From: Maylandia zebra
Taxonomy: Eukaryota; Chordata; Actinopteri; Cichliformes; Cichlidae
NCBI RefSeq assembly: GCF_041146795.1
Contig: NC_135185.1
Span: 10,535,529 to 10,599,528, forward strand
Direction of reading: 5' to 3'
Length of the DNA: 64,000 bases
This document shows positions 1-55,210 of the stretch, one piece after another. The position numbers and the translations under genes were made by a program. The first letter of the stretch is position 1. Each line of letters begins with the position of its first letter. The notes under the pieces are model-generated. The model saw nothing but the letters and a program-made list of their open reading frames with translations, did no database searches and was not told the origin of the DNA.

Positions 1-1685
1 GACACGGTCTCATCCCCCTCGTTAACTCCATGGACGTCCCGGGCATAATGACACGCAGCGTGAACGATGCGGCCGTCGTCTTAGGTGAGAATCCCCCAGG
101 TGACCCTGGACATCAACACGCAGCAGCTCTATGATTAAGAATGTCTGAATAAGAATGTCTGCCGCTCTAAAGGAAACTGCAGCTGTCTCATTTCGCAGCA
201 CATCGGCCAAACGGCACGACTCACCTGGGATTATGTTGTCGTGTCGTGCAGGTATCCTCCAAGGCCTCGACGTCAGAGATTCAACAACAGTTCCCGCCCC
301 TTCATCACTAACAGAGCTTCCTGAAGACTTTGATGTTAAGAACATCTGTGTGGGCATCCCTAAGGTGACACTACAAACTACCTCAGCATTACACGCCAAC
401 ATATTACTTTGCAGGAGTGAATATTGAGGTCAGCACTGAGATGAACCTTAACATGGAAGCTGCTGAGATGATTGCATTGATTGCAAAGGCAGGTAGATGA
501 AAGTCGAGTATGAACAACATGTTGAGCTGTTGTTCTGTCTCTCCTGTGCTGCACGTCAGGAGTATCACGCCCCGGGCCTCTCCGAGGAGACTCTGGCCCA
601 GTGGAGCAGTGTGGCCGACTTGTTTGAGGAAGCTGGAGCGCGGGTGGAGCGAGTGTCGCTCCCCCATACGCAGTACTCCATCGTGTGCTACCACGTCCTG
701 TGCCACGCCGAGGTGGCGTCCAACATGGCCCGGTTTGACGGCCTGGAATACGGTAATGAATCGTGCTGTGGTGTGTGGGTTTGGCACTTCTTATAGCGGA
801 TGTGATGAAGTCTGACTCTGCCAGCAGGCCACCGCAGCCAGATGGACACCTCGACAGAGGTCATGTACGCCTCGAGCAGGCACGAGGGCTTCAACGACGT
901 CGTCAGAGGGAGGATTCTGTCTGGGAACTACTTCCTGCTAAAACGGTGAGACTGAGCCGTCGTGTTTCCGAGCCATGGAGGGATCCTGTGATCCTCTCCA
1001 TCTCTCGATCTTTTTCTAAAGAATAATTGTGTCCTTTTATTTTCCCCCTAGGAACTACCAGCACTACTTTGTGAAGGCTCAGAAAGTTCGCCGGCTCATT
1101 GCGAATGACTTCCAGCGCGTGTTCAGCTCTGGTGTCGATGTACTGCTGACGCCCACCACGCTGACGGATGCGGCTCGTTACCACGACTTCACTCAGGAAG
1201 ATAACCGAACGCGCAGCGCACAGGAAGACGTCTTCACGCAGCCCGCCAACATGGCAGGTAGGCACTGAAGCTGCATGCAGAGGAAGTGTGGGAGGAGCAT
1301 TTAAATATGTTGGGGATAAGCACACCATGCACACCTGTAACTGAGGAGCTTAAGAAGCTGCTTCTCGTTTCCCTCCTGCACATGAAGTGAAATGAAACTG
1401 GTGTTTTTGAGCCGAAGCGGCGTTCTCTGTTCACTCTGTGACTTAGAGCATCCAGCTTCTCTCAACTCTCTCTCTCTCTGCACACCAGGTCTCCCTGCTG
1501 TCTCTGTGCCGACGGCTTTGTCGAGACGGGGCCTTCCCATTGGCCTACAGCTCATAGCTCCCGCTCTCCAAGACCGAAAGCTGCTCAGCGTGGCCCAGTG
1601 GATCGAGCAGAGGGTTGGTTTCCCCTCGATCAGTGACTTTGAGGACTCGGGAATGACGAGACGGGAGCAGACGGGAGCTGCGTGA
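1..1685 (+). CDS. qrsl1: Glutaminyl-tRNA synthase (glutamine-hydrolysing)-like 1, mitochondrial GatA subunit (3' part)
   Basis: This is the amidase subunit of the mitochondrial GatCAB complex, which converts Glu-tRNA(Gln) to Gln-tRNA(Gln). Six exons are visible: 1-84, 252-364, 560-752, 828-945, 1052-1257 and 1489-1685. All have GT-AG borders, and from base 3 the joined frame is 303 codons ending in TGA at 1683-1685. Recognisable blocks, in order, are [88 protein letters not shown] and [12 protein letters not shown], all typical of animal QRSL1. The 5' exons, with the mitochondrial presequence and the catalytic Lys and first Ser of the amidase triad, lie off the left edge. Introns are compact (75-231 bp). 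I see no frameshift or internal stop. The family assignment is confident; the species ortholog is inferred. Confidence 0.95.
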
Positions 1686-10783: not shown

Positions 10784-11354
10784 TCATCCGGACCAGCCGT
10801 GCAGGAGAACCGTGGACAGAAGCAGCGGAGCGACGAGCAGCGTGAAGGCGGCGGGACTCCCGCTGGCGCTCGACGGTGCGGCTGTAGTCGAGTTCTGGGT
10901 GTTGGTGCCTCCGGTTCCGCTTTTACCTTGTGCCTCGGCCACCTGCAAAACATGAGATAACCACATGAGTTTAACGAATAGACACTGCACCAGGACACAG
11001 GAGTCACTCTCATCATCACCGCCTTCAGCTCAAATTGAATTATTCACGCACTTCACTCCAGGCTCCCCCCCCCCCCCCCTTCAGGTTTTGAATCAAAGTC
11101 TGTCAGAGAATCTTTCGTCTCCATTTCTGCCAAACACTGAACTAAATTCTGAGCTGAAGCTGCAGACAGCTGCTGCTCTGGCAGTTGTGCATTTAATTAT
11201 GCGCAAACAAGCTGCGTTACGCACGGCAGTTTGCGCCTCTTCTGTGAGGGAAAATGTGTAAAAAGATGCTTTAAACACGGGCTGAACTGACCTGGGAGGT
11301 GAGATTGAGAGCCAGCAGCAGGACTGCGACGAAAACGATGCTTAGCTTCTTCAT
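10784..11354 (-). CDS. cd24: CD24-like GPI-anchored mucin peptide, copy 1
   Basis: Two coding exons read leftward. Exon 1 (11354-11292, 63 nt) encodes a 21-residue signal peptide starting MKKLSIVFVA and ending in a GTCAGT donor. Exon 2 (10942-10784, 159 nt) starts after TTTTGCAG. The product is 73 aa. After VAEAQG the mature part is only about 30 residues of Gly/Ser/Thr (GTGGTNTQNSTTAAPSSAS, one N-glycosylation sequon, NST). A hydrophobic tail follows (LLVAPLLLSTVLL, ending HGWSG), the arrangement of a GPI-attachment signal. The size, the two-exon layout, the signal/mucin/GPI order and the place next to qrsl1 all match CD24, a heavily glycosylated cell-surface adhesion and signalling molecule. 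Sequence identity in such short peptides is low, so orthology rests on architecture and synteny. Confidence 0.8.
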
Positions 11355-11424
11355 GCTGATGTGATGGGAAACTGCTGCGCTCGGTGGAGGAAAGGCAATT
11401 GAAACAGGAGGCGCGCAGTCGCAC

Positions 11425-11432
11425 CTTTTATA
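11425..11432 (-). promoter_or_regulatory. TATA box of CD24-like copy 1
   Basis: TATAAAAG on the minus strand ends 70 bp before the copy-1 ATG, followed by GAGGCGC-like and GGAGGAAAGG motifs. The same TATA with a GGGGGC flank precedes copy 3 at a similar distance, which supports a shared core promoter. Confidence 0.7.
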
Positions 11433-11750
11433 GCCCCCACCCAACCGACACAGAAACCGCCTTCATCATGCTGCTTTCAGGCGCTTTCAGGCGGAGATAG
11501 AGCTGCTCAAGGAGCAGAAGACAGCATAATATAATGCTATATAATGTTTAATTAAAACAGTATTTTAAGCACCCTGGGATCGTCTTTCACACCAAATCCC
11601 CCGAATAACTCAAGACAATTATGCAATGGTTCTCAGTTGTTTTTTGCTTTTCCCCGCCATTATAACTACATGTTTGTTCCGTGTGTTCTTTTGTTTGTTT
11701 GTCAAACAGCTTATTCTGCATTGTGAGCATCATCGTCTGTAGCCTGCTCC

Positions 11751-12381
11751 TGTTAGGTGACGGCTGTGTGCAAACAGGAATAGGACCCAAGGTGCAGACT
11801 CCGGAGACAGACGTGAACTCAAAAAGGCTTTAATGCTGAACGCAACATGACATAACTAGAAAAACTCAAAATAAACTTACACCGGTGGACAGGTAACACA
11901 CACAGCAAAATAAACGGTAGATCGCGACACGGACACAGAGAAACACAGGGCTTAAATACACAGAGGGAGCAATCAGGGAATGAGTAACAGGAGGGAAACA
12001 CAGCTGGGACAAATCAGAACTGACGAGACCAAAGAAGCGTAAACTGAACACACTGAGAAAAGACAGAGACCTTCAAAGTAAAACAGGAAACACATAACAC
12101 AGACTGAACAAAGACACAGCCTCACATGTAGGCACTACAGAGGGAACAGAGACGTGGGACCAGGGCAGACACAAACACTGAGTGGACACGGGGATATAGG
12201 AACTAAGGATACACATAGACGCGAACTAGACAAGGGGATGCAGGTGATAGGGGAGACAGAGCAACTAAAGAAGACAGAGACATAAACCATGAGACAGAAC
12301 TCAAAGAAACCAAAAAACTAGAAAATATAAATAATATCATACACTCAAAAACCCTGGGTCAACGACCCAGGCATCCTAACA
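11751..12381. mobile_element. Probable solo LTR (631 bp, TG...CA, 5-bp target duplication)
   Basis: The element begins TGTTAGG and ends CCTAACA, and both sides carry GCTCC (11746-11750 and 12382-12386). TG...CA ends with a 5-bp duplication are the mark of an LTR insertion, and no coding remnant lies inside. Near the right end is a perfect GGGTC/GACCC dyad. A DNA transposon with similar ends cannot be excluded. Confidence 0.55.
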
Positions 12382-12455
12382 GCTCCATTGTAAAGCGCTT
12401 TGAGTGCTCAGATGAGTAGAAAAGCGCTGTATAAGAACCAGTCTATTTACCATTA
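12382..12455. repeat. SINE / L2-type 3' tail
   Basis: The stretch holds TTGTAAAGCGCTTTGAGTGC, then AGAAAAGCGCTGTATAAGAA, the familiar tail shared by fish tRNA-derived SINEs and L2-like LINEs. The LTR at 11751-12381 directly abuts it and appears to have split it. Confidence 0.65.
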
Positions 12456-15400
12456 TACACTGGTAAAAATAATAATAATAATAATAATTAAAGTAGCGTT
12501 CAAAGTTCATCAGATTTCAGTGGGGTATAAATCATGCTGAATACCTGCACTGATGTGCACTGGGTCATGTGTCAGGAGTGAAAGGATGCCAAGAAATTAA
12601 AGTAGCCTGCAGAGGGCACATACCTACAGACACCTGAAAATCAGAGTGAAAACACACGGAGGGACAATGTCAGTGGCCTCCGTCTGTAAAATCATTCCCG
12701 ACTCGGAGGTTGTCTCACTTTTAGCCCTCTGGTGCACTTGTTGTTAATTTCATTAGCACCAAAGCAGCTTAAACTGATTAGCATCCTCCTCTGCTACTTG
12801 ACAGCCCAGATCTATATCCTAGAAGTTTAACTTGATGCTCTGATCGGAAAATGCTTCTTTAATTTGATTGTATTACCCTTTAATAAGCAGGGATATAGGT
12901 TTTGAATTTTTCCTTTAATTTGTCATCTAAGGCTTCGATTTAACTAACGATAGATAAATGACGACCTCTAGTGGTCAGTCGCTGTCATTGCCGCTTCAGA
13001 TTCTCCTACGACATGCGTTTAAAGCTGGAGGGTGCTGAGGTGTCTCCGTGTATCACAGGGACCGCTCAGACCCAATGGTTTGGAGGTCAAGTTAGAGAGA
13101 AAAGGTCAAGATGGTTGGTATCATCATCATCATCATCATCACCATGGTTGAAAACCAGGAAGCTGACAGTCCAGTTTCCAAACATGTCAGAGTACTGGCT
13201 TCTGAAGTGTGTGAGCCGCCTGGAAGCATTTTAAACACTTTGATTTCTAGTTGTTATTACTAATAATTACTGGTAGTAGCCATTGTAGTATTATCCAGTT
13301 AAAATAAAGGTTACATAAATAACCTTTATTGTTATAATAGAAAAAAAAAACGCATCTTTACGTTTAAATAAGGAAATACAGTCTTAGAGTATGTCTGATA
13401 GAGCCTTGTGGAACTCCAGATGCAGAAATTTAACTGAGAAATTCCTTTAAAAATCACATTTACACCAACTTAAAGCCAAACTCAACTCTTGCACAATATG
13501 ACAGAAAGTGTCCTGTAGGTTTCACACTACATTTATTCTTTTACAAATGTCTTCAAGAGTTCAGCTAAGCACAGATCTCCACTTGTTTTCTACAACGCAG
13601 GGAAACAATATTCCACATTTTTATCCAGTCGCTCAGATTTATTTTGCACAAACATGTAAACCCGGTTGCTAATCTACTAATCAACACACTGAACATATTG
13701 TGTCATTTCCAGCAGACTGAGCTGTCATGTATTAGTGAACTTCATCAAAATTTCACAACCGAAAATTAAGAAACTTTGGCCACAAACATCTGAATGTACA
13801 GAAACACAAAAGCTTCAAAGAACCATTTTAAACAAGTACAGGAAGTACATTTTATTTAAACTCTCAAGTCTGTATCTGCACAGAGCCTTCGACATGCATG
13901 TTTGTACATTACAACCTTTTTTGTAAAAGAAATAACCAGAATAAATAAACGAATTAAACTTGTCATGTTTTTCTAAACTGGTTAAATAATTTAGTAGTAG
14001 TAAGTACGCCTGAGTATTTAGAGCAGTACAAACAAACGTTTGCTCGTGCCTGACTAGCAGCAAGCTCAGTCTAAAACAATCCACACTGTGTACTTTAGAG
14101 TTTTTGTTTAAAATGTCTGAACCGTCTCAGGTTCCAGTTTTTACAGGATGTAGTGACAGGCTGAACATGTTGCATCAGTGCAGCATGTTTAAAAAGGGAA
14201 CTTTATGATCGTATAGACAACAAATTACTCATCATGGCTGAGGTGCTGCTTCTCTTTTTGTTCTTATTCTTGGTGAAATCTCTACATCATCTACTGTACA
14301 GCGTCGATATAATCCTTTATAACGTCGACTGAGCCGAGTCAGGCATCCTGCAAACCACCAGATTGCTAATTTTGCTGGTTAACCCCGTTTCTTCTTCAGA
14401 GCCATCACCATATATAAGGTCAAATACGAGTCCTGACAGTGCTGACCGTGTAACAGCTGGGATGGGCGCCAGCAACGCTGAATTAGACAAGGAAGGAAAC
14501 GAATGGATGGAATTCCGAGTTTTTCGTGTAATCTAGTGGTAGGACACACCTGAGGGAAGAATCATGACACAGAGTGCATACTGTGTTCCCACTGCACCCC
14601 TTAGTGTCACCACTGTGGATCCTCTGCCATCATCTCATTGGATGCTCAGCATCAGAGATGATAGATAATCAGGTTGGCACAGTTTTTGGGTTATGTCTTT
14701 GTTGTACTGCAGCATGTTGAACAATAATTAAAAGCTACACTTTCACTGAGTGTAGGCCCTCCAGACCGGCCCATCACTCCAAAGTGGGTCGACCCACCGG
14801 GAAAACCCCCAGTATGTCAGATTGCATCCTCCTCTGCACAGTTTCCACTGGTGACCAACACCAGGTCTCTTTAACCCCGACTGATCCAGCACGGAGATGT
14901 TATTATTGATGATCCACGTTTGATGTGAATGCCCGACTGCCTCAGTTAAGGTCAGAGGTCATGATTCAACTGTTAAAAAAAAATAAAAAAGACTGTGGGA
15001 GAGTCCAAGAAAACCACTGCTGACCAAAAAGATCACAAAAGCTCATCTCACATCTGCTAACAAACATCTGGATGATACCCGAGACTTCAGTGAAATATTC
15101 TGTGGACTGATAGCAGAGGCTGAACCATTTCCTGTTAGATTTGCGTCAGACTCACAGCGTTTCATAAAGGGAACATCCCAGCAGCAGGCAGACACTGTGG
15201 TGGTTTGGGATGCAGTGTGACTGAGGGAATTGTGCTCTCCACCAGGAAACCCTGAAGGAGGATGTCTGCCCATCAGCTCAGTCATTGTCCTGGTGTATAT
15301 TCATTTCACACAGCACTGGCAGGTTTGAACAACTTTGTTTTAACAAAGAAAATCTGCATTAAAACAAAAACACCACGTTGTATTCACTGACTTTCTCCAA

Positions 15401-17737
15401 CACTGTACATCATGCGGGTTTATTAGCAGGACTGATTTCTGAATGTTACGATACTGACTTTACCCACAGCCTCACAGTAACATCCTCGTACCCTTATCAT
15501 CATATCTCCAGGTTTTTGAGGGAAATGCAACCTCAGATAAACACCATTTACAAAATGCAGAAGCACCATCTGAAACACTGAGTCTGCACCATCATCAGCT
15601 CAGAAAACCACTTTCAGCAGCAATAGCTTGAAGTACTGGTTTTCTGTGTTACTTTATAAGGCTCGCACATCATTCTGGAGGAAATTTTACTTCTGCTTTA
15701 CATCATTGCTTCAGTCGAGGTCGGTGGTTTGGGCTAGTGCAACCCAGGCTTCAGCTGCCGCCAACACTTTAGTACACAGGAGCTCACGGCCCGCACCACT
15801 GCAAGGTGCCCACATCATCAGCTGTGCTGAGTTTGGTTTTTCTTGAAACACGCGCTCTGCATTACAGGCAAACGCCTCCACTGTGTGTGAAAGGACAGAT
15901 TTCTTTCTCTTCTCAGTTTTTACAGAGAAGAGAAAGACTTTTTTTTAGAGAGAGGGGAAGTGCTGATTGGGCCGTATCATTAGCAAATTATCTTAAAAGT
16001 CTTTCTTTGGCTCGTGACTTCGTTTACTTCATCTTGGGTTTGATTATTTATTTTAATTAACTGCTAAACTAACTGTTGGTTATGTTACTTACCAGATGAT
16101 TTTTTGAATATTTATTTCCCCCCATTGTATTGAACCGGTGTGATCAGCTACCATTTAAGTTTCCTTTATTTCCTGTGTGTTAGGCTGCTGTTATTCTGTC
16201 GAGCAGTCAGTTTGGAGGCTTGAGTTCAGGGGCTGCTGTTGTTAGTTTACTTTGGATATTTCTACATTTTGGGGTAAATAAAACCCACTTTTTCCCTAAT
16301 CACCACTAACTCACACTCACACGGACCTTGAGGTGAATTTCCTGGGAGTTTTGAGAAAACTGTGAGCCTCTTGAACGTCTTCCACTCATGGATAATCTCT
16401 CACTGCAGAATGATGATCTTTGTTCTTATGAACAGACTGAGTGTTGGTCTCTAACATCACTACTGACGTTGTGTCAACACACCTAAATGTTGCAGATCTG
16501 CTAACTGGTCTGACAGAGGTGCTCACACCTGATGAGGATCAGTTAAGTGTGTGTTTGATTAGCAGCACCTGGCTCATAGTTACTCTCATAATGAAGCAGC
16601 AAGGCTGGACTTTGGCTTCATGTTTGTGAAATAATGGTGACACATCATGTAATATATTGTTCATTTGAAGCTGTATTTACTTAACTGATCAAACCTTTAA
16701 ACCACCACATATTAAATAATCAGCATCGTCACATTTATCAAACTTCTCATACTGTTTTCAGCGCTGTGACTGAAACCTGCTTTATTTTTTCAGTTCATCC
16801 TCATTGGGTCTTACTTTCACCTGTGATCTACACCTGTCCATTATTCCCCAGCCACACCCCTGCATCCTGTCACAGTGTACACACTCCGTGTAGCCTACTT
16901 TACTAGATAGTCTTCCTCAGTTTGTCAGTCTTTCCTACTGTTTCCAGTTTTCACTTCCTTTTCATCTGTTTGTGTTTGAGCTTGTTTACTGATTCTGACT
17001 TCAGCTCCTCGTATTTTCCCTCTTCTTCCTCTGCGTGTCTCCCTTTTGAGTTCTTTCCCTCCAAGTTATCACAGATTCACTTTGCAAATATTATTTCATC
17101 TCTTGGATCTCTGAGCTCATACTGAAAATATAATATAAAGAAAGTTGGTATAATTTTACATTCCGCTCCACTTTTAAAAGTGATCCGTGCTTTTAACACA
17201 TCCAGGCCGAGTTACTGCAGTTTTGTGTCAGATGGGCCAAAACGCTCCTGGCGATGCGTCTACATGTTAGAATTCACTTCATAGTTTTCATACTGGTACT
17301 TTCAGCAAGTCTGCAAAGGTTAAACAAGCTGAACGTAAAAAAGCGATTCAGCTTTTGTGATGAGGTTCAAATTAAAAATAAAAGTTTTTTCAAGCGAGAT
17401 GTTTGACCATCACACCTCTACTGTACAACCAACGGTTCTATGCAACAGAATAAATGCAAGCAGCTGCGTAAATGTGCATAATTGCACATCTAGAGCAGAG
17501 CAGGCTTTAAAATAGCTGCTTTTCGATTCTATCAGCCGCACGTTTATTTACAGTCACCCGAAACCAGATTAAGCTGAGCCTGATAATCCGCCTGTGCGGC
17601 TGACACGGACACCAAACCTGATTATCAGTGTTCTCAGTTCACCTGCTCAACCTCTTCCAGCATCTATACTTCACATACCGTGACGCTCCACGGGGGAAAA
17701 AACAACAGCTCAGTCACGTGTTCCTACAATTTACAGT
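12456..17737. other. Spacer between CD24-like copies 1 and 2, no gene supported
   Basis: About 5.3 kb with only small simple repeats, (AAT)n near 12,470-12,488 and (ATC)n near 13,122-13,142. Open frames of up to 89 codons (13815-14084, minus) lack any family motif. No duplicon landmarks as strong as those on the 3' side of copies 1 and 3 were seen. Confidence 0.45.
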
Positions 17738-17743
17738 TTTATT
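17738..17743 (-). terminator. PolyA signal AATAAA of CD24-like copy 2
   Basis: AATAAA on the minus strand 246 bp after the copy-2 stop, in a TTTACAGTTTTATTC context that resembles the end of copy 3. Its downstream flank also shares GAAACCAGATTAAG with the flank of copy 3. Confidence 0.6.
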
Positions 17744-17988
17744 CTTTTTATAAAATTCGAGAAATCTGGTCTAAAGTACAAAACTCGTTCGTGTACAATC
17801 ACTTGAAACGGATTGTCTTCTTCACGGGTGCGTAAAGACAGCCAATCGGGGCGGCGAGCGCTCCTTTCAAAACATTTCCCATCAACACTGAAAACGATTT
17901 CACTTCAAAGAAAAAATACATTGAATCTGGAATAAAACTAAAGATGCGTCTCCAGTCCACGCGTGACGGCTGTGCCGTGTCCGCTCGC

Positions 17989-18720
17989 TCAGGCGTGAAA
18001 CAGAAGAGCCGCGAGCAGCAGCGGGGACAGCAGCAGCGTGGAGAGGGCGGGACCTCCGCAGCCACTCTTAGTGGGTTCACTGGTGGAGATGGAGGTGGAG
18101 CTGGTGGTGGAGGTGTTGGTGCTGGGGAGGGCGGTGCTGGCTGCCTCGGCCCTCTGAAACACACAAAAGCGAACTGCGATCACGGAGGGTCACGACAAAC
18201 TCCTGATCCCGTGAAAACTTTAAACACCACGCGAGCGAAAATCTTCATTTTAATCATTTCATCAAAATTCCACAAAAACAGAATTTCCCCTCACGTTTAC
18301 TTCTACCCTCAAATCTGGTGTAAGGAATCTTCCACTCGGGATTCTTTGCGCTCCCACGATAAATGTTACTCATTCCACATTTTAACACTGACGTTGTTTT
18401 TTACTCATCAGGCCCGGGGGCACGAAAAACCCGCCGGTCTTTATTTCTGCCCAACGTTATTTCCACAGCTCTAAACTCGGAGTTTGTGGAAGTTTGGAGT
18501 TTCTCCTTCAGTCTCGGATGCTCCTCAACATAAGCCTTAAAGCTCCTTATGTCCGCATTTAATTAGGCGCAAACAAACTGCGTTTCCGCCGCATCTTTAA
18601 AAGAAAAGGTGCTGAAAGATTTAGTTTTTATTAAAAAGATGCAATGGTGAAACTGACCTGAGAGCTGAGACGGAGAGCCAGCAGCAGAACTGCGAGGGAA
18701 ACGATGCTCAGCGTCTTCAT
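17989..18720 (-). CDS. cd24: CD24-like GPI-anchored mucin peptide, copy 2
   Basis: Exon 1 (18720-18658, 63 nt) encodes a 21-residue signal peptide starting MKTLSIVSLA. Exon 2 (18153-17989, 165 nt) follows a TTTCAG acceptor in the same phase as in copies 1 and 3. The product is 75 aa. The mature stretch is almost pure Ser/Thr (STNTSTTSSTSISTSEPT), with one NTS sequon. A Gly-rich hinge (KSGCGG) and a hydrophobic tail (LSTLLLSPLLLAALLFHA) give a typical GPI signal. The signal peptide is nearly identical to that of copy 1, and the two introns share a conserved block, so these are tandem duplicates. The role is inferred from CD24: a glycan scaffold on the cell surface. Confidence 0.8.
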
Positions 18721-18792
18721 GCTGGAGGTGATGGAGGCTCGTTTTCTCTGTCGGGTGGAGGAACAGTGAATGAACGGGAGGCGCAGGTCGGG

Positions 18793-18800
18793 CTTTTATA
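18793..18800 (-). promoter_or_regulatory. TATA box of CD24-like copy 2
   Basis: TATAAAAG on the minus strand ends 72 bp before the copy-2 ATG. The 5' UTR has GGAGGCGC and GTGGAGGAA, as in its paralogs. Confidence 0.7.
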
Positions 18801-18873
18801 GGCTTTGAATTTACCGCTGATGTATATATGGTGACATCTAGCGGCCGCTCGCTGACTCACAGACGCTGCTCTG

Positions 18874-18875
<2 letters not shown>

Positions 18876-18967
<92 letters not shown>
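18876..18967. repeat. (GT)n microsatellite
   Basis: A perfect 92-bp GT run about 75 bp upstream of the copy-2 TATA box. Long GT runs can form Z-DNA, but nothing here shows a function. Confidence 0.95.
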
Positions 18968-18968
<1 letters not shown>

Positions 18969-19621
18969 TTTAACTCCATTCCAGCCACATGACTAGATGA
19001 GCACCGCACTATTCTCATTGTCATTGGCCTGTCAGTCAAAGCTGGAAAGGAATGACTTCTATTGACTTTATATTGATCATGTGTCATTGTTCTATTGAGG
19101 AAACGTTATTTTGACATCATTAACATGTCATCAGCTAAACAGCTGTAAAGACTGTGAACACACTGATTTCTGCTGGATGTTTTGGTGCACGACTCTGTGG
19201 GGACGTGTTTGCTGGGCAGCGAGCAGGAAACCCGTCCTCCAGCCTGCTGATTTAACCTCACAGTGCAACGGCCAGCTGGAGGTTACCTCACCAATGTGGA
19301 TTGTTTACCTGCAAGCCAGTAAGACTCCCGTTACTAAAAAAAAGTCGCCTGCAAGTCCCCAGCTTGTACACAATAACCTGCAGAAAGTGTTTTGTGAGAT
19401 AAGGTGGGCCGTGCATACCTGCAGGCCGTGTCGACAGGAGTCCGAACTGTTAGAAGTGATTCAGGCTTTTAACTGGCTGAGAAGAATCGAGGTGGCTGGC
19501 GGGACATGTTTGTACCAAATTTCAGTCCATTGTGCAGAAATAAAGAAACCTCAGAGGTCATATAGAAGAAACACTAACAGGCTACTCAGCTCTGCATCAT
19601 ATTTAGAAAATTACAGAGTGA

Positions 19622-19830
19622 ATTATGGAGGTTTTTAATGCAGCACCATCAGGTGAACAGCGTGAGAGAAAGAGGAAACTAGCACCCGTCTCAAACAGTA
19701 AAGGAAATACGCAGTTTTATTTTGAGGAAGATTACATCATCCTCACAGACCCACACACCTCGCTCACGTCTTCATCACTTTGCATAAACGTCCTCTTCTC
19801 ACTCGGCCCGTTTCTGTTGTAGTTTATCTC
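19622..19830. repeat. CD24-array flank duplicon, copy C
   Basis: A diverged copy of 7501-7720: CACCATCAGGTGAACAGC, GAGTCTCAAAC-like, TTACATCATCCTCACAG, CTCACGTCTTCATCACTT and CTCTTCTCACTC occur in the same order. It lies on the 3' side of CD24-like copy 3, just as copies A and B lie on the 3' side of copy 1. A further shared tail (GAGCTGTTATTGATGAGCAG) follows near 19.95 kb. Confidence 0.65.
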
Positions 19831-20595
19831 TAACCAACATGTTTCCAATGTTAACAGGTCTGATGTGTAAGTCTGAATAAACTAAAGGTTGTTAATAATT
19901 CAGAAAGTATCTGTGCAGGGAGGGATCTCTGCCTCCAGCATGCCTGTGGAGCTATGAGCTGTTATTGATGAGCAGAGTGAGCTGGTGTGACTCACAGGGA
20001 GACTAGCAAACAGAGGCTGGATCCTTTGATTTTGGACAGTAGTCAGACTTCGGTGTAAACATGCGAGCACCAATCCATCCTGCTTTATACCAGCAGCACA
20101 TGTTTGTCAAGGTGTGGGTAGATTTTCTTTAGACACTTCAGGCCCCTCAGAAAAAAACTGAGCCACGGTGCGTCCTGCTGGTAAAAGTGCACCTTCTAGA
20201 ATACACTGTATATAAGATGGACACAGTCACGTCTCAGTCCCGAAGCAGTTTTACATTTATGTTAGCTGTATATTTGAGTTCCAAATTAAAACCTTTCTGC
20301 ATGTACACACAGAAACTTCTGAATCTGGAGGCTTAGACCTAAGTTCACCACATGTGAGGCAGCAGGTGTGCCCTGTGTTGACTAGCATTACCACAGGAAG
20401 CTCAGATTTTCTCGTCAGGGTTAGGGTGCCAATTTAAAATAGCTGAAACCAGATTAAGAGGCTGAAGGAGCCTGATAGTCAGACCTGGTGTGACTGAGCC
20501 ACAGCGGGTCAGACCATCGGGGCTCTGAACTCACTCATGCAGCTTCACTTTTCCCGCACAGGAAGGAAACAGTCACGTGGTCTTAGATTTTAAGT

Positions 20596-20601
20596 TTTAT
20601 T
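20596..20601 (-). terminator. PolyA signal AATAAA of CD24-like copy 3
   Basis: AATAAA on the minus strand 190 bp after the copy-3 stop, close to the position of the copy-2 signal relative to its gene. Confidence 0.6.
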
Positions 20602-20790
20602 CAGTTGACATCAAAGCACAGCCTTTCAGTCCCAAATGTTTTACAGCATTTAGACAAACTTCATAGTCAGTGACACCGGAAACAGGAGCACCTCCATGAC
20701 TCACTCCTGTTCTCAGAGTTCAGGAGGAAACAGCTTTTTATTAAACCTCCTTTCCAAGTTTCCACGGAGTCCAGGCCGATCCGGATCCAG

Positions 20791-21451
20791 TCATCCGGAC
20801 CAGCTGTGGAGGAGAGCCAACAGAGCCAGCAGCGGAGTGCAGGCGGCGGGTCCCCGGGAGCCGGTCCCTGTCGGAGGCCTGCTTCTTGGAGAAGTCGCAG
20901 TCTTCACAGTGGAAAGTGTGGACGCCGTGGCAGAGACTGCCTTCACCGTGGAGGACTTTACTGTGGACGCCGCGGTCATAGTGGACAACGTAGATGCGCT
21001 GAGCGTGGAGGACTTGACCGTGGACGCCGTGGAATGGCTGACCGTGGAGGACTTGATAATGGACGCCGTGGACGGGCTGACCGTGGAGGACTTGATCGTG
21101 GACGACTTGATCGTGGACGCTGGGGACGCCGTGGACACGTGCCCCCGGGCCATCTGCAACACAAGAGACGCCATGAAGCTGAGGAAGTGCGGCTGCACAC
21201 CGTGGGGAGGCTGAGAGGCCCTTAGAGTTACCTCCACCTTTGATCAGGTGTTTAAATTTAACGTTTGACAAAAAGTTTGTCCCGCAGCCTCTCCTGCCCC
21301 TCCACGCGACATTTAAAGCTTCTTAACGTAATGCAACTCCTCAGCACGAACACGACACTCACGACACTTGGACAAAAACGTAACTCACCTGTGAGCTGAG
21401 CTGGAGAATCAGCAGCAGCGATGCGAGGACGACCACACGCAGCGTCTTCAT
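20791..21451 (-). CDS. CD24-like GPI-anchored mucin, copy 3, with expanded Ser/Thr repeat
   Basis: Exon 1 (21451-21389, 63 nt) encodes a 21-residue signal peptide starting MKTLRVVVLA. Exon 2 (21153-20791, 363 nt) follows TGTTGCAG in the same phase as in the other copies. The product is 141 aa, about twice the paralogs. The mature region is a degenerate repeat of STVKSSTVS-like units interspersed with Lys, with almost no other residue types for about 75 positions and no N-glycosylation sequon. A basic hinge (SPRSRPPTGTGSRGPAAC) leads to a short hydrophobic tail (LLALLALLHSWSG) that shares its WSG end with copy 1, so a GPI anchor is likely. Predicted role: a densely O-glycosylated surface mucin. 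No expression evidence is available here. Confidence 0.75.
20945..21140. repeat. Coding minisatellite, 39-bp unit, in CD24-like copy 3
   Basis: On the plus strand CGTGGAGGACTTGA starts at 21004 and 21043, with CGTGGAGGACTTGATCGTGG at 21082, an exact 39-bp spacing. A related start at 20947 is offset by 57 bp. The unit encodes 13 residues on the minus strand and keeps frame. Sub-units of about 15-18 bp are visible. Frame-preserving spacing suggests expansion under protein-level constraint or recent slippage. Confidence 0.75.
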
Positions 21452-21510: not shown

Positions 21511-21518
21511 CTTTTATA
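21511..21518 (-). promoter_or_regulatory. TATA box of CD24-like copy 3
   Basis: TATAAAAG on the minus strand ends 59 bp before the copy-3 ATG. The flank GTGGGGGCTATAAAAGGTG is almost the same as in copy 1. Confidence 0.7.
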
Positions 21519-22247: not shown

Positions 22248-23801
22248 GGAGTGCAGAATTATTAGGCAAATGAGTATTTTGTCCACATCATCCTCTTCAT
22301 GCATGTTGTCTTACTCCAAGCTGTATAGGCTCGAAAGCCTACTACCAATTAAGCATATTAGGTGATGTGCATCTCTGTAATGAGAAGGGGTGTGGTCTAA
22401 TGACATCAACACCCTATATCAGGTGTGCATAATTATTAGGCAACTTCCTTTCCTTTGGGTAACCGGGTTAAAAGAAGGACTTGACAGGCTCAGAAAAGTC
22501 TAAAATAGTGAGATATCTTGCAGAGGGATGCAGCAGTCTCAAAATTGCAAAGCTTCTGAAGCGTGATCATCGAACAATCAAGCGTTTCATTCAAAATAGT
22601 CAACAGGGTCGCAAGAAGCGTGTGGAAAAACCAAGGCGCCAAATAACTGCCCATGAACTGATAAAAGTCAAGCGTGCAGCTGCCAAGATGCCACTTGCCA
22701 CCAGTTTGGCCATATTTCAGAGCTGCAACATCACTGGAGTGCCCAAAAGCACAAGGTGTGCAATACTCTGAGACATGGCCAAGGTAAGAAAGGCTGAAAG
22801 ACGACCACCACTGAACAAGACACACAAGCTGAAACGTCAAGACTGGGCCAAGAAATATCTCAAGACTGATTTTTCTAAGGTTTTATGGACTGATGAAATG
22901 AGAGTGAGTCTTGATGGGCCAGATGGATGGGCCCGTGGCTGGATTGGTAAAGGGCAGAGAGCTCCAGTCCGACTCAGACGCCAGCAAGGTGGAGGTGGAG
23001 TACTGGTTTGGGCTGGTATCATCAAAGATGAGCTTGTGGGGCCTTTTCGGGTTGAGGATGGAGTCAAGCTCAACTCCCAGTCCTACTGCCAGTTTCTGGA
23101 AGACACCTTCTTCAAGCAGTGGTACAGGAAGAAGTCTGCATCCTTCAAGAAAAACATGATTTTCATGCAGGACAATGCTCCATCACACGCGTCCAAGTAC
23201 TCCACAGCGTGGCTGGCAAGAAAGGGTATAAAAGAAGAAAAACTAATGACATGGCCTCCTTGTTCACCTGATCTGAACCCCATTGAGAACCTGTGGTCCA
23301 TCATCAAATGTGAGATTTACAAGGAGGGAAAACAGTACACCTCTCTGAACAGTGTCTGGGAGGCTGTGGTTGCTGCTGCACGCAATGTTGATGGTGAACA
23401 GATCAAAACACTGACAGAATCCATGGATGGCAGGCTTTTGAGTGTCCTTGCAAAGAAAGGTGGCTATATTGGTCGCTGATTTGTTTTTGTTTTGTTTTTG
23501 AATGTCAGAAATGTATATTTGTGAATGTGGAGATGTTATATTGGTTTCACTGGTAAAAATAAATAATTGAAATGGGTATATATTTGTTTTTTGTTAAGTT
23601 GCCTAATAATTATGCACAGTAATAGTCACCTGCACACACAGGTATCCCCCTAAAATAGCTAAAACTAAAAACAAACTAAAAACGACTTCCAAAAACATTC
23701 AGCTTTGATATTAATGAGTTTTTTGGGTTCATTGAGAACATGGTTGTTGTTCAATAATAAAATTATTCCTCAAAAATACAACTTGCCTAATAATTCTGCA
23801 C

Positions 23802-27788: not shown

Positions 27789-30700
27789 ATGTCCGTGGCT
27801 AACGCTAAACACACGGTTCTGAATCCGGTAAGCGGATTATTATTATCATCATCTCCATCAGCCCTCTGATGGCTGCATGCTCTGCTGTCTGCACGCATGC
27901 AGTTTCTAGCGCTGTCCGCACATCTGCCCACACACCTGTCCACATCTGTCTGTCTGACCACACTCGAATGAAGACACGAGGCTCTCTGAGGTTTCCATGT
28001 CCGCTCTGCAGGTGATCCCATACACTGGACCCATACCTGGTGGCCTGCACCCCGGGGAGATCATCATCGTCCAGGGCACCGTCCCCCCCGATGCTGACAG
28101 GTAAGATTCAAATCAAACAGCAGCAGTTTGTTCTGTTCATGCAGGAAAACTAACAAAGAAAAAATCTCCCCCTGCAAACATTTTCAGCTAAAAGAGAATG
28201 AAAGTTGACCCATGACGCTGTTTTCAGGTGTGTGTGATATTTACTGTATTACTGAACTCTTCCATACCTGCTTTGCTTGATTTAAAGTTCACAATAATCC
28301 TTCTGTATATTATTCTGGGACTAAGTGCAGCATCTCAGTCCATCCTGCCTGAAACAAGCCCCCTTTGTTCTGATTGGCTGCCCCTCACCTGTCAAGTTTG
28401 GTTTATGGATTTTGCTGCAAATTCAAAAACTTCATTTTGTGTTGATTTGTAAAATTATTTATACTTAATAGTTTCACAAGTTGTATAAGCAAAGGATATT
28501 TAAAGTGCTTATTATAAACTGTGGCACCTTTCACAATCATATAGATTATATTATTGAACCATAATTATTGATCTTTGTATAACTTTAATGTTCTAGCTGC
28601 TGCTGATTGAGATGATTTTTATATTGCAGGGTAGCTTGTATCTGTGCAGGTGTGCTGTCACATGTTACCGATGCTGCTCTGTCACAGAGGGGAAATGCTC
28701 GAGAACCTGCTGACGTGAAATATTCAGTAATTCATATTTTGGTGAAAGCAGCAGCATTACATGTGAAGCAAATGAGTGAAGCTGAAAAGAGGAAGTGATG
28801 GTGAATAGTTTGTTTTTATTGAAATAGTGTTTCCACACACAGCGAGGCCTCCTGTGGTTTGTTGTTTCCAGATGTTACAGCTGTTTTATGTTCGCTGATA
28901 AAACGAAACTTAAATCTTTCTGCTGTGAGTTTGTAGCACAAACGTCTCTGACTGCAGGTGCTGTCCGTGGTTCTGATCAAAAGGTGAAACGATGTTGAGG
29001 TTACTGCTTATTGATATGTGATATTATTTTGGTGTGTACAGTGTGCGTGGGGGGTTGTGTGTCTGTTTAGGTACGATGTAGCAGCAAGGACCCAAAAACT
29101 CCGGAGCCTCTCACAGAGCTGTTCACTTCTCACTCATGCTGGAGACCCAATCTGCTCAGTTCTGTTTCTAGATTAGAGATCAGCAGGTTTGAAATCATCG
29201 TCTGCTGGCCAATCAGAAAAGTGCCGCTGTTCCTGGACCCTCACAGGGTCTGACGGTTTTTACCATCCAAAGTCTTTATGTCATGAGCATCAGTGAGAAC
29301 TATAGAAACTTAATTCCTGATTTATTTACATTTCCTCTTTCCTTAAACAGCTCCGACACTGCAGCTCAATCAAATGTCTCACTCACATCTAAATGTTCCT
29401 TTAACCTCCTAGGACCTCCATCCACATATGTGGACATCACATTTTGGGTTATTTAGACCAAAATACTCAATTTTGCTCTACGAGGGCCTGATATCCACTT
29501 ACGAGGACATTATGCTGCCACTGTTCTATCAGAATTTTAAATGAATATCCTCATATGTGGCTCTGATTTTTCTTAAAAACAAAAATAAGGTAAAAAAGAA
29601 AATCTGGTAATTCTTTGTTTTTACATTCATCGGGCCCCAATGAGCCCAAATATCAAAGAGAAATTAAAAATGCTGCTGTGGAAGAGTTCAGGTCTTAGGA
29701 GGTTAATGAAGATCCGTTCACTGCCAACTCTTTCCTTCCTGATTCAAATAAACTTTATGAACACAGACTGACTGAGCAAAGCTCTGGATGCTCACACACA
29801 CTCAGTCTGTATTTAACTCGTCAGCTTTGTCTTCATCTGTACACTCAGCCACTTCACTGTCAGTAAACCTGATTGGTCAGATGCTGAAACCCCGCCTCCT
29901 GCTGGGTTTACTGGGATCGCTGAGAAGTTACCCTGGATGTGCTGATCTGTGCACATTCAATTCCAGTTGCAGAGAACAGGTCCAGGATCAGTTTGGCTGA
30001 TATCAATGAGGTTGTTATTCTCTTCGGTGATCATGCATCGCTCCCAGCTCTGCTACAGTCAGACCACTCAAAGTCTCTCTCTCTTTTCTTTAAATCACAT
30101 CTGAGAGCTCAGCTGTTCTGCCAACTGGGTTCAGAATAAAAGGATGGAGTTACATCCACGTGGAGTTTAAGTTAAACGTTGATGCACGACATGATTTAAT
30201 GGGCAGTTAAACTTTGTGCAGGTTTCAGATCGACCTGTCGAGTGGCTGCAGCACCAAACCACGCTCTGACGTCGCCCTCCACTTCAGCCCTCGCTTCAAG
30301 GGCTCGCCCTGTGTGGTGTGCAACTCCCTGCTGCAGGAGAGCTGGGGCAGAGAGGAGACGCTCCACCAGCTGCCCTACAAGCGCGGCGCCCCCTTCGAGA
30401 CGATCATCCTGGTGCATGAAGACGCCTTCAAGGTCTGTGAGCCCGAGCTGGTGGAGATGGTAGGCCTGCATGTGGAACCGAAAGATAACGCTCCTTGTTC
30501 ACCTGCAGGTGGCGGTAAATGGAGCGCACCTGCTGGAATACAAGCACAGAATTCCTCTGAACAGGGTTGACACCTTCTCCATCTGTGGGAAAGTCAGGGT
30601 GAACGCTATCGGCTACATCCCAAACTCAGTGAGTACATGTCTTTCTCATATTTCAGGTTTTTTGCCGCTCGTGTCTAAATGTGTGTTTTCTCCCTCTCAG

Positions 30701-33782: not shown

Positions 33783-55210
<21,428 letters not shown>

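What the first reader, a model, noticed from the sequence alone, without database searches (positions are those of the whole stretch)
10784..21451. Tandem array of three CD24-like genes
Three minus-strand two-exon genes share a 63-nt signal-peptide exon, phase-0 intron, mucin-like mature part, GPI-type tail and TATA box. As I recall, CD24 is usually a single gene next to QRSL1 in tetrapods, and qrsl1 is next door here. A local triplication with diverging mature peptides suggests selection on cell-surface glycan scaffolds. Simple similarity searches could miss these genes because the mature peptides are so short.
Basis: partly seen in the sequence, partly recalled or inferred. Interest (0 to 1): 0.75.

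Follow-up and report, generated by a model that had tools for sequence, protein, structure and literature searches.

The report
Four CD24-like genes in a fish
A fish chromosome carries three neighbouring tiny genes, plus a distant fourth, that look like relatives of the mammalian cell-surface sugar scaffold CD24, a gene that two papers say fish lack; this makes the question testable but is not proof of function.

Summary
Three minus-strand two-exon genes (A 73 aa, B 75 aa, C 141 aa) lie exactly at window 10784-21451, with 63-nt signal-peptide exons, phase-0 GT-AG introns after codon 21, and TATA boxes. A fourth gene, D (69 aa), lies outside the window, 2.1 Mb away on the same contig. Exon 1 is 44-54 of 63 nt identical in the 6 pairs of the four genes, above every shuffle. 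An exon-1/donor pattern with up to 3 mismatches finds just these four places in 962 Mb, none in the reversed control. A GatA-type amidase (qrsl1) on the plus strand ends near window 1.7 kb, with an rtn4ip1-like gene beyond. Best reading: a small fish CD24-like family beside the usual CD24 neighbours. Membership is not proven: Pfam's CD24 model misses all four proteins although it finds recalled human CD24, and only D clearly resembles human CD24 beyond shuffles. Two papers say fish lack CD24. Gene C has a 39-bp in-frame repeat and no N-glycan sites. Selection was not shown; no expression data or other fish genome was available.

The parts
11292..11354 (-). gene A exon 1 (21 codons, signal peptide)
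   Evidence: whole-genome pattern hit
10784..10942 (-). gene A exon 2 (S/T-rich mature part, hydrophobic C-terminal tail, stop); protein 73 aa
11426..11432 (-). gene A TATAAAA box, 78 nt before the ATG
18658..18720 (-). gene B exon 1 (21 codons, signal peptide)
17989..18153 (-). gene B exon 2; protein 75 aa
18794..18800 (-). gene B TATAAAA box, 80 nt before the ATG
21389..21451 (-). gene C exon 1 (21 codons, signal peptide)
20791..21153 (-). gene C exon 2; protein 141 aa, long S/T/K-rich part
20981..21104 (.). 39-bp tandem repeat (3.2 copies, 83% matches, 4% indels) inside gene C exon 2; 39 bp is 13 codons, so in frame
21512..21518 (-). gene C TATAAAA box, 67 nt before the ATG
1..1685 (+). 3' part of qrsl1 (GatA-type amidase), exons and introns; the rest lies to the left of the window

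Best explanation
These are three tandem members, with a dispersed fourth (D, G000 C19:8421084-8421743), of a fish gene family that most likely descends from the same ancestor as tetrapod CD24. Exon 1 encodes a cleaved signal peptide. Exon 2 encodes a very short Ser/Thr-rich stalk that is probably covered with O-glycans (and N-glycans in A, B and D), followed by a hydrophobic tail that is probably exchanged for a GPI anchor. The protein core would act as a scaffold showing sialylated glycans to lectin-type receptors, as CD24 does. Shown: the paralogy, gene anatomy, copy number by pattern, and neighbours. Inferred: expression, signal cleavage, GPI anchoring, glycosylation, CD24 orthology and receptor binding.
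For: Same exon 1 length, intron phase and position in four genes. Four exon-1/donor pattern matches in the genome, none in the reversed control. qrsl1 (+) beside the array, its central piece (two exons joined) matching GatA structures best (E 1.6e-22, against 8.7e-11 for the best FAAH), with an rtn4ip1-like dehydrogenase (-) beyond. QRSL1, RTN4IP1 and C6orf203 are among six genes named as very close to human CD24 in PMC6581687 (passage). In human CD24 codon 57 lies in exon 2 (PMC4442284, passages), as the mature part does here. Hydrophobic N-terminal and C-terminal ends, as in recalled human CD24. Ser+Thr 32-61% of the core. D aligns to recalled human CD24 better than 998 of 1000 segment-wise shuffles.
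Against: Pfam CD24 (PF14984) matches none of the four proteins at E up to 10 (3, 1), though it finds recalled human CD24 at 5.5e-25; it also matches nothing in the genome, a search without a working positive control. A, B and C do not clearly exceed shuffles against human CD24 (54, 41 and 530 of 1000). Profile against profile (D, A, B against recalled human and mouse; C left out) gives 37% probability, E 0.00035, and covers just the signal-peptide region. The copy most like human CD24 (D) is the one not beside qrsl1. The right-hand neighbours are a galectin and, outside the window, an ARID-domain gene, while a bend3-like gene is 4.5 Mb away. No expression evidence.
Confidence: 0.7

Rival explanations
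1. A separate fish family of short signal-peptide, S/T-rich, GPI-tailed peptides that is not descended from CD24 and merely sits beside qrsl1.
For: Pfam CD24 misses all four. Weak similarity to human CD24 for A-C. Such low-complexity anatomy can arise repeatedly; recalled human CD24, A and B all give a weak match below the cut-off to the unrelated New_glue model.
Against: Location beside qrsl1 with an rtn4ip1-like gene beyond, on the minus strand facing qrsl1, the two-exon plan, and the Gln of the exon junction aligning with a Gln near the end of the human signal peptide (the human intron position is recalled).
Confidence: 0.22
2. Gene C is no longer a CD24-type anchored scaffold but a secreted or degenerate mucin-like peptide.
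For: 39-bp repeat expansion, no N-glycosylation sequon, 9 Lys/Arg in the core, a less hydrophobic tail than A, B and D (best 15-residue mean 1.88 against 2.26-2.39), and a tail shorter than that of A (by eye, sequences).
Against: The human tail (recalled) is less hydrophobic still (1.66); the frame stays open for 141 codons with splice sites, TATA box and final LLHxWSG, as in A, intact.
Confidence: 0.3
3. Some of the copies are unexpressed pseudogenes left by tandem duplication.
For: No transcript data; pN close to pS in exon 1 for 4 of 6 pairs.
Against: All four keep start, donor, acceptor, open frame, TATA box and a poly(A) signal despite divergence of 9 to 19 of 63 nt in exon 1.
Confidence: 0.15

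Closest known systems
CD24 (mammalian; heat-stable antigen; Pfam PF14984)
   Same: Tiny precursor, signal peptide, S/T-rich mature core in exon 2, hydrophobic tail ending near LLH (LLFH in B), neighbours QRSL1 and RTN4IP1 (human sequence recalled).
   Different: Four copies, where mammals have one (single copy recalled); no match to the Pfam CD24 model; C is nearly twice as long, with an internal repeat and no N-glycan sites; D is away from qrsl1.
CD52-type and other short GPI-anchored glycan scaffolds (recalled, not compared here)
   Same: The same design idea: a minimal peptide carrying glycans on a GPI anchor.
   Different: No sequence or position comparison was run.

Membership tests
CD24 | match to the family profile PF14984 | tested here: not met
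   0 of 4 proteins at E up to 10; positive control with recalled human CD24 at 5.5e-25; 0 matches in the genome, where the answer itself warns that no control genome rang
CD24 | genomic position beside QRSL1 and RTN4IP1 | tested here: met
   Met for A, B and C; not met for D, which lies near a class I tRNA synthetase (iars2-like) and a RAB3GAP2-like gene
CD24 | two-exon coding region, mature part in exon 2 | tested here: met
   4 of 4 gene models, without transcript proof; human codon 57 in exon 2 per PMC4442284 passages; the exact human intron position is recalled only
CD24 | sequence similarity to mammalian CD24 beyond composition | tested here: inconclusive
   Shuffles reaching the score, of 1000: D 2, B 41, A 54, C 530; profile comparison 37% probability, E 0.00035, signal region only
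CD24 | S/T-rich, glycosylatable core | tested here: met
   S+T of core A 42%, B 61%, C 52%, D 32%; N-sequons in the core of A, B and D, none in C
CD24 | GPI anchoring | not testable with these tools
   Only the hydrophobic C-terminal end was measured; no GPI predictor or assay available
CD24 | ligand for Siglec-type receptors | not testable with these tools
   Needs binding assays

The most novel reading that the evidence does not exclude
Fish do have CD24, contrary to two papers, and in this lineage it became a four-gene family in which one copy (C) grew a repeat-built mucin core. This would be a set of diverged glycan scaffolds, possibly marking different cell types, including fish B-cell stages.
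Probability: 0.4. Interest if true: 0.65.

Novelty: new variant of a known kind. Interest (0 to 1): 0.45.

Why it matters
Two papers say that fish lack CD24: one lists CD24 among B-cell markers without orthologues in fish genomes (PMC8227096, passage), the other says it seems to be missing from fish and several tetrapods (PMC9141580, passages). If these genes are CD24, the gene is far older than those papers say, and fish immunology gains up to four candidate surface markers. The case also shows how position plus a signal-peptide exon can find genes whose mature peptide is too short and too variable for a profile search.

Tried and rejected
Rejected: a fifth copy at C17:1015749 (E 0.18); no signal-peptide exon seen there (read by eye). 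A scan of 174 kb around the window and 100 kb around D with nucleotide profiles built from the four genes found no further copy: beyond the four (recovered by construction) the hits were, for the promoter-exon 1 profile, E 0.0069 (window-relative 79317, outside the window, no such exon seen by eye) and 0.29, for exon 2 none, and for the downstream profile E 0.00077 (antisense, inside gene C's own downstream flank) and 0.43 (sequence at 79317 printed). A motif search for the amidase signature inside the window found none, because that exon lies left of the window. Four-taxon trees of promoter, exon 1, exon 2 ends and downstream DNA disagree, with bootstrap support of 41-76, so the order of duplication is unresolved; promoter similarity highest for A-C but exon 1 similarity highest for A-B hints at gene conversion. 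Selection: exon 1 is too short. Structure prediction was not run because the mature part is expected to be disordered. Literature: ten searches. No listed title is about a fish CD24 gene, but several lists were cut (30 of 92, 15 of 4,474, 20 of 4,114), the library holds only part of the literature, and gene databases could not be consulted, so these genes may well be annotated somewhere. Passage look-ups in PMC11426453, PMC8828949, PMC9630641, PMC4598043 and PMC5525251 gave nothing on fish CD24.

Genome searches with recalled human CD24, with gene A protein, with promoter-exon DNA and with the SOBP family got no answer because the machine was busy (see below), so those four tests are missing.

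Full report
Observation. Three minus-strand genes were rebuilt from the DNA: A (73 aa), B (75 aa) and C (141 aa), at exactly the coordinates given. Each has a 63-nt first exon ending in a CAG codon, a GT-AG phase-0 intron (349, 504 and 235 bp), an open second exon, and a TATAAAA box 67-80 nt before the ATG. Against 300 mononucleotide shuffles, exon 1 and exon 2 score above the shuffle maximum in 6 of 6 pairs of the four genes (D included), the 150 bp upstream in 4 of 6, the 500 bp downstream in 4 of 6 and the introns in 2 of 6. Exon 1 identity is 44-54 of 63 nt. They are diverged paralogues, not assembly copies.

A fourth gene. Reading the DNA showed a complete gene D of 69 aa with the same exon 1 length, a like donor, the same phase and a TATA box, and searching with D recovered both of its exons. 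A 34-place pattern over the end of exon 1 and the donor matched four places in the 962-Mb genome, all without mismatch, although 3 were allowed; the reversed control matched none. The pattern was derived from these four genes, so a more diverged member could escape.

Neighbours. An amidase gene on the plus strand starts left of the window and ends near window 1.7 kb. Its central piece (two exons joined) matches bacterial GatA structures best (E 1.6e-22), ahead of other amidases (next kind 4.3e-18) and FAAH (8.7e-11), which fits qrsl1. Left of it, minus-strand pieces match zinc-type dehydrogenase domains in the manner of rtn4ip1 (the gene name is by recall). PMC6581687 names ATG5, C6orf203, QRSL1, PREP, RTN4IP1 and AMD1 as lying very close to human CD24 (passage). 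On the right the synteny is not kept: a galectin gene in the window, an ARID-domain gene beyond it, and a gene with three BEN matches in one 741-codon open frame (bend3 by recall) 4.5 Mb away on the same contig. D lies near tRNA-synthetase and RAB3GAP2 genes on one side and a SPRY-domain piece (ryanodine receptor by recall) on the other.

Is it CD24? For: position, orientation facing qrsl1 (the human orientation is recalled), two-exon plan with the mature part in exon 2 (PMC4442284 passages), S/T-rich core, hydrophobic ends. Against: Pfam's CD24 model misses 4 of 4 proteins, although recalled human CD24 scores 5.5e-25; it also rings nowhere in the genome, but that search had no working control. 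Global alignment with recalled human CD24 beats segment-wise shuffles clearly only for D (2 of 1000 shuffles reach it; B 41, A 54, C 530). Profile comparison (C left out) aligns only the signal-peptide end, at 37% probability and E 0.00035, with the junction Gln of the fish genes in register with a human Gln. I therefore describe the genes as CD24-like and probably orthologous by position, not as proven members.

How they probably work. By anatomy: signal peptide, short glycan-bearing stalk, probable GPI tail. Core S+T is 42, 61, 52 and 32% for A-D; N-sequons are present in the cores of A, B and D but not in C. C carries a 39-bp repeat, 3.2 copies and in frame, and a less hydrophobic tail than A, B and D, though not less than recalled human CD24. 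Glycan display to lectin receptors is inferred from mammalian CD24 and was not tested. Trees of separate gene parts conflict (support 41-76).

Context in print. [quoted passage not shown] In ten literature searches no listed title is about a fish CD24 gene, but several lists were cut, the library is partial and gene databases were out of reach, so annotation elsewhere as CD24 or CD24-like is quite possible.

Limits. Human and mouse CD24 sequences, the single copy in mammals and the exact human intron position are recalled. Genome searches with human CD24, gene A, promoter DNA and the SOBP family did not complete.

Noticed in passing
G000 C19:8421084-8421743 (L004, L011, L012): Fourth CD24-like gene of the same build, 2.1 Mb from the array, near iars2-like and RAB3GAP2-like genes.
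   Followed up: yes
window 20981-21104: 39-bp in-frame tandem repeat in gene C exon 2; may vary in number between individuals.
   Followed up: partly
window 22772-23476, +: Long ORF that reads like a Tc1-type transposase (by eye) between gene C and the galectin gene.
   Followed up: no
window 30226-30495, +, and probably on to about 31434: Galectin exon (Gal-bind_lectin E 3.3e-18), further exons by eye: a glycan-binding protein next to glycan scaffolds, probably coincidence.
   Followed up: partly
window 33786-34304, -: Open segment with coding-like codon use and no Pfam match at E up to 0.01.
   Followed up: no
G000 C22:3207013-3313111: Tandem cluster of amidase genes, probably FAAH-like: seven places match the same part of the amidase profile.
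   Followed up: no
near window 10412 (A), 17743 (B), 20601 (C); C19 near 8422157 (D): Stretch around the poly(A) signal is alike in the four genes: TAAATTGT just after it in A, B and D, and CACGTGACT or CACATGACT further on in B, C and D (by eye in the alignment).
   Followed up: partly
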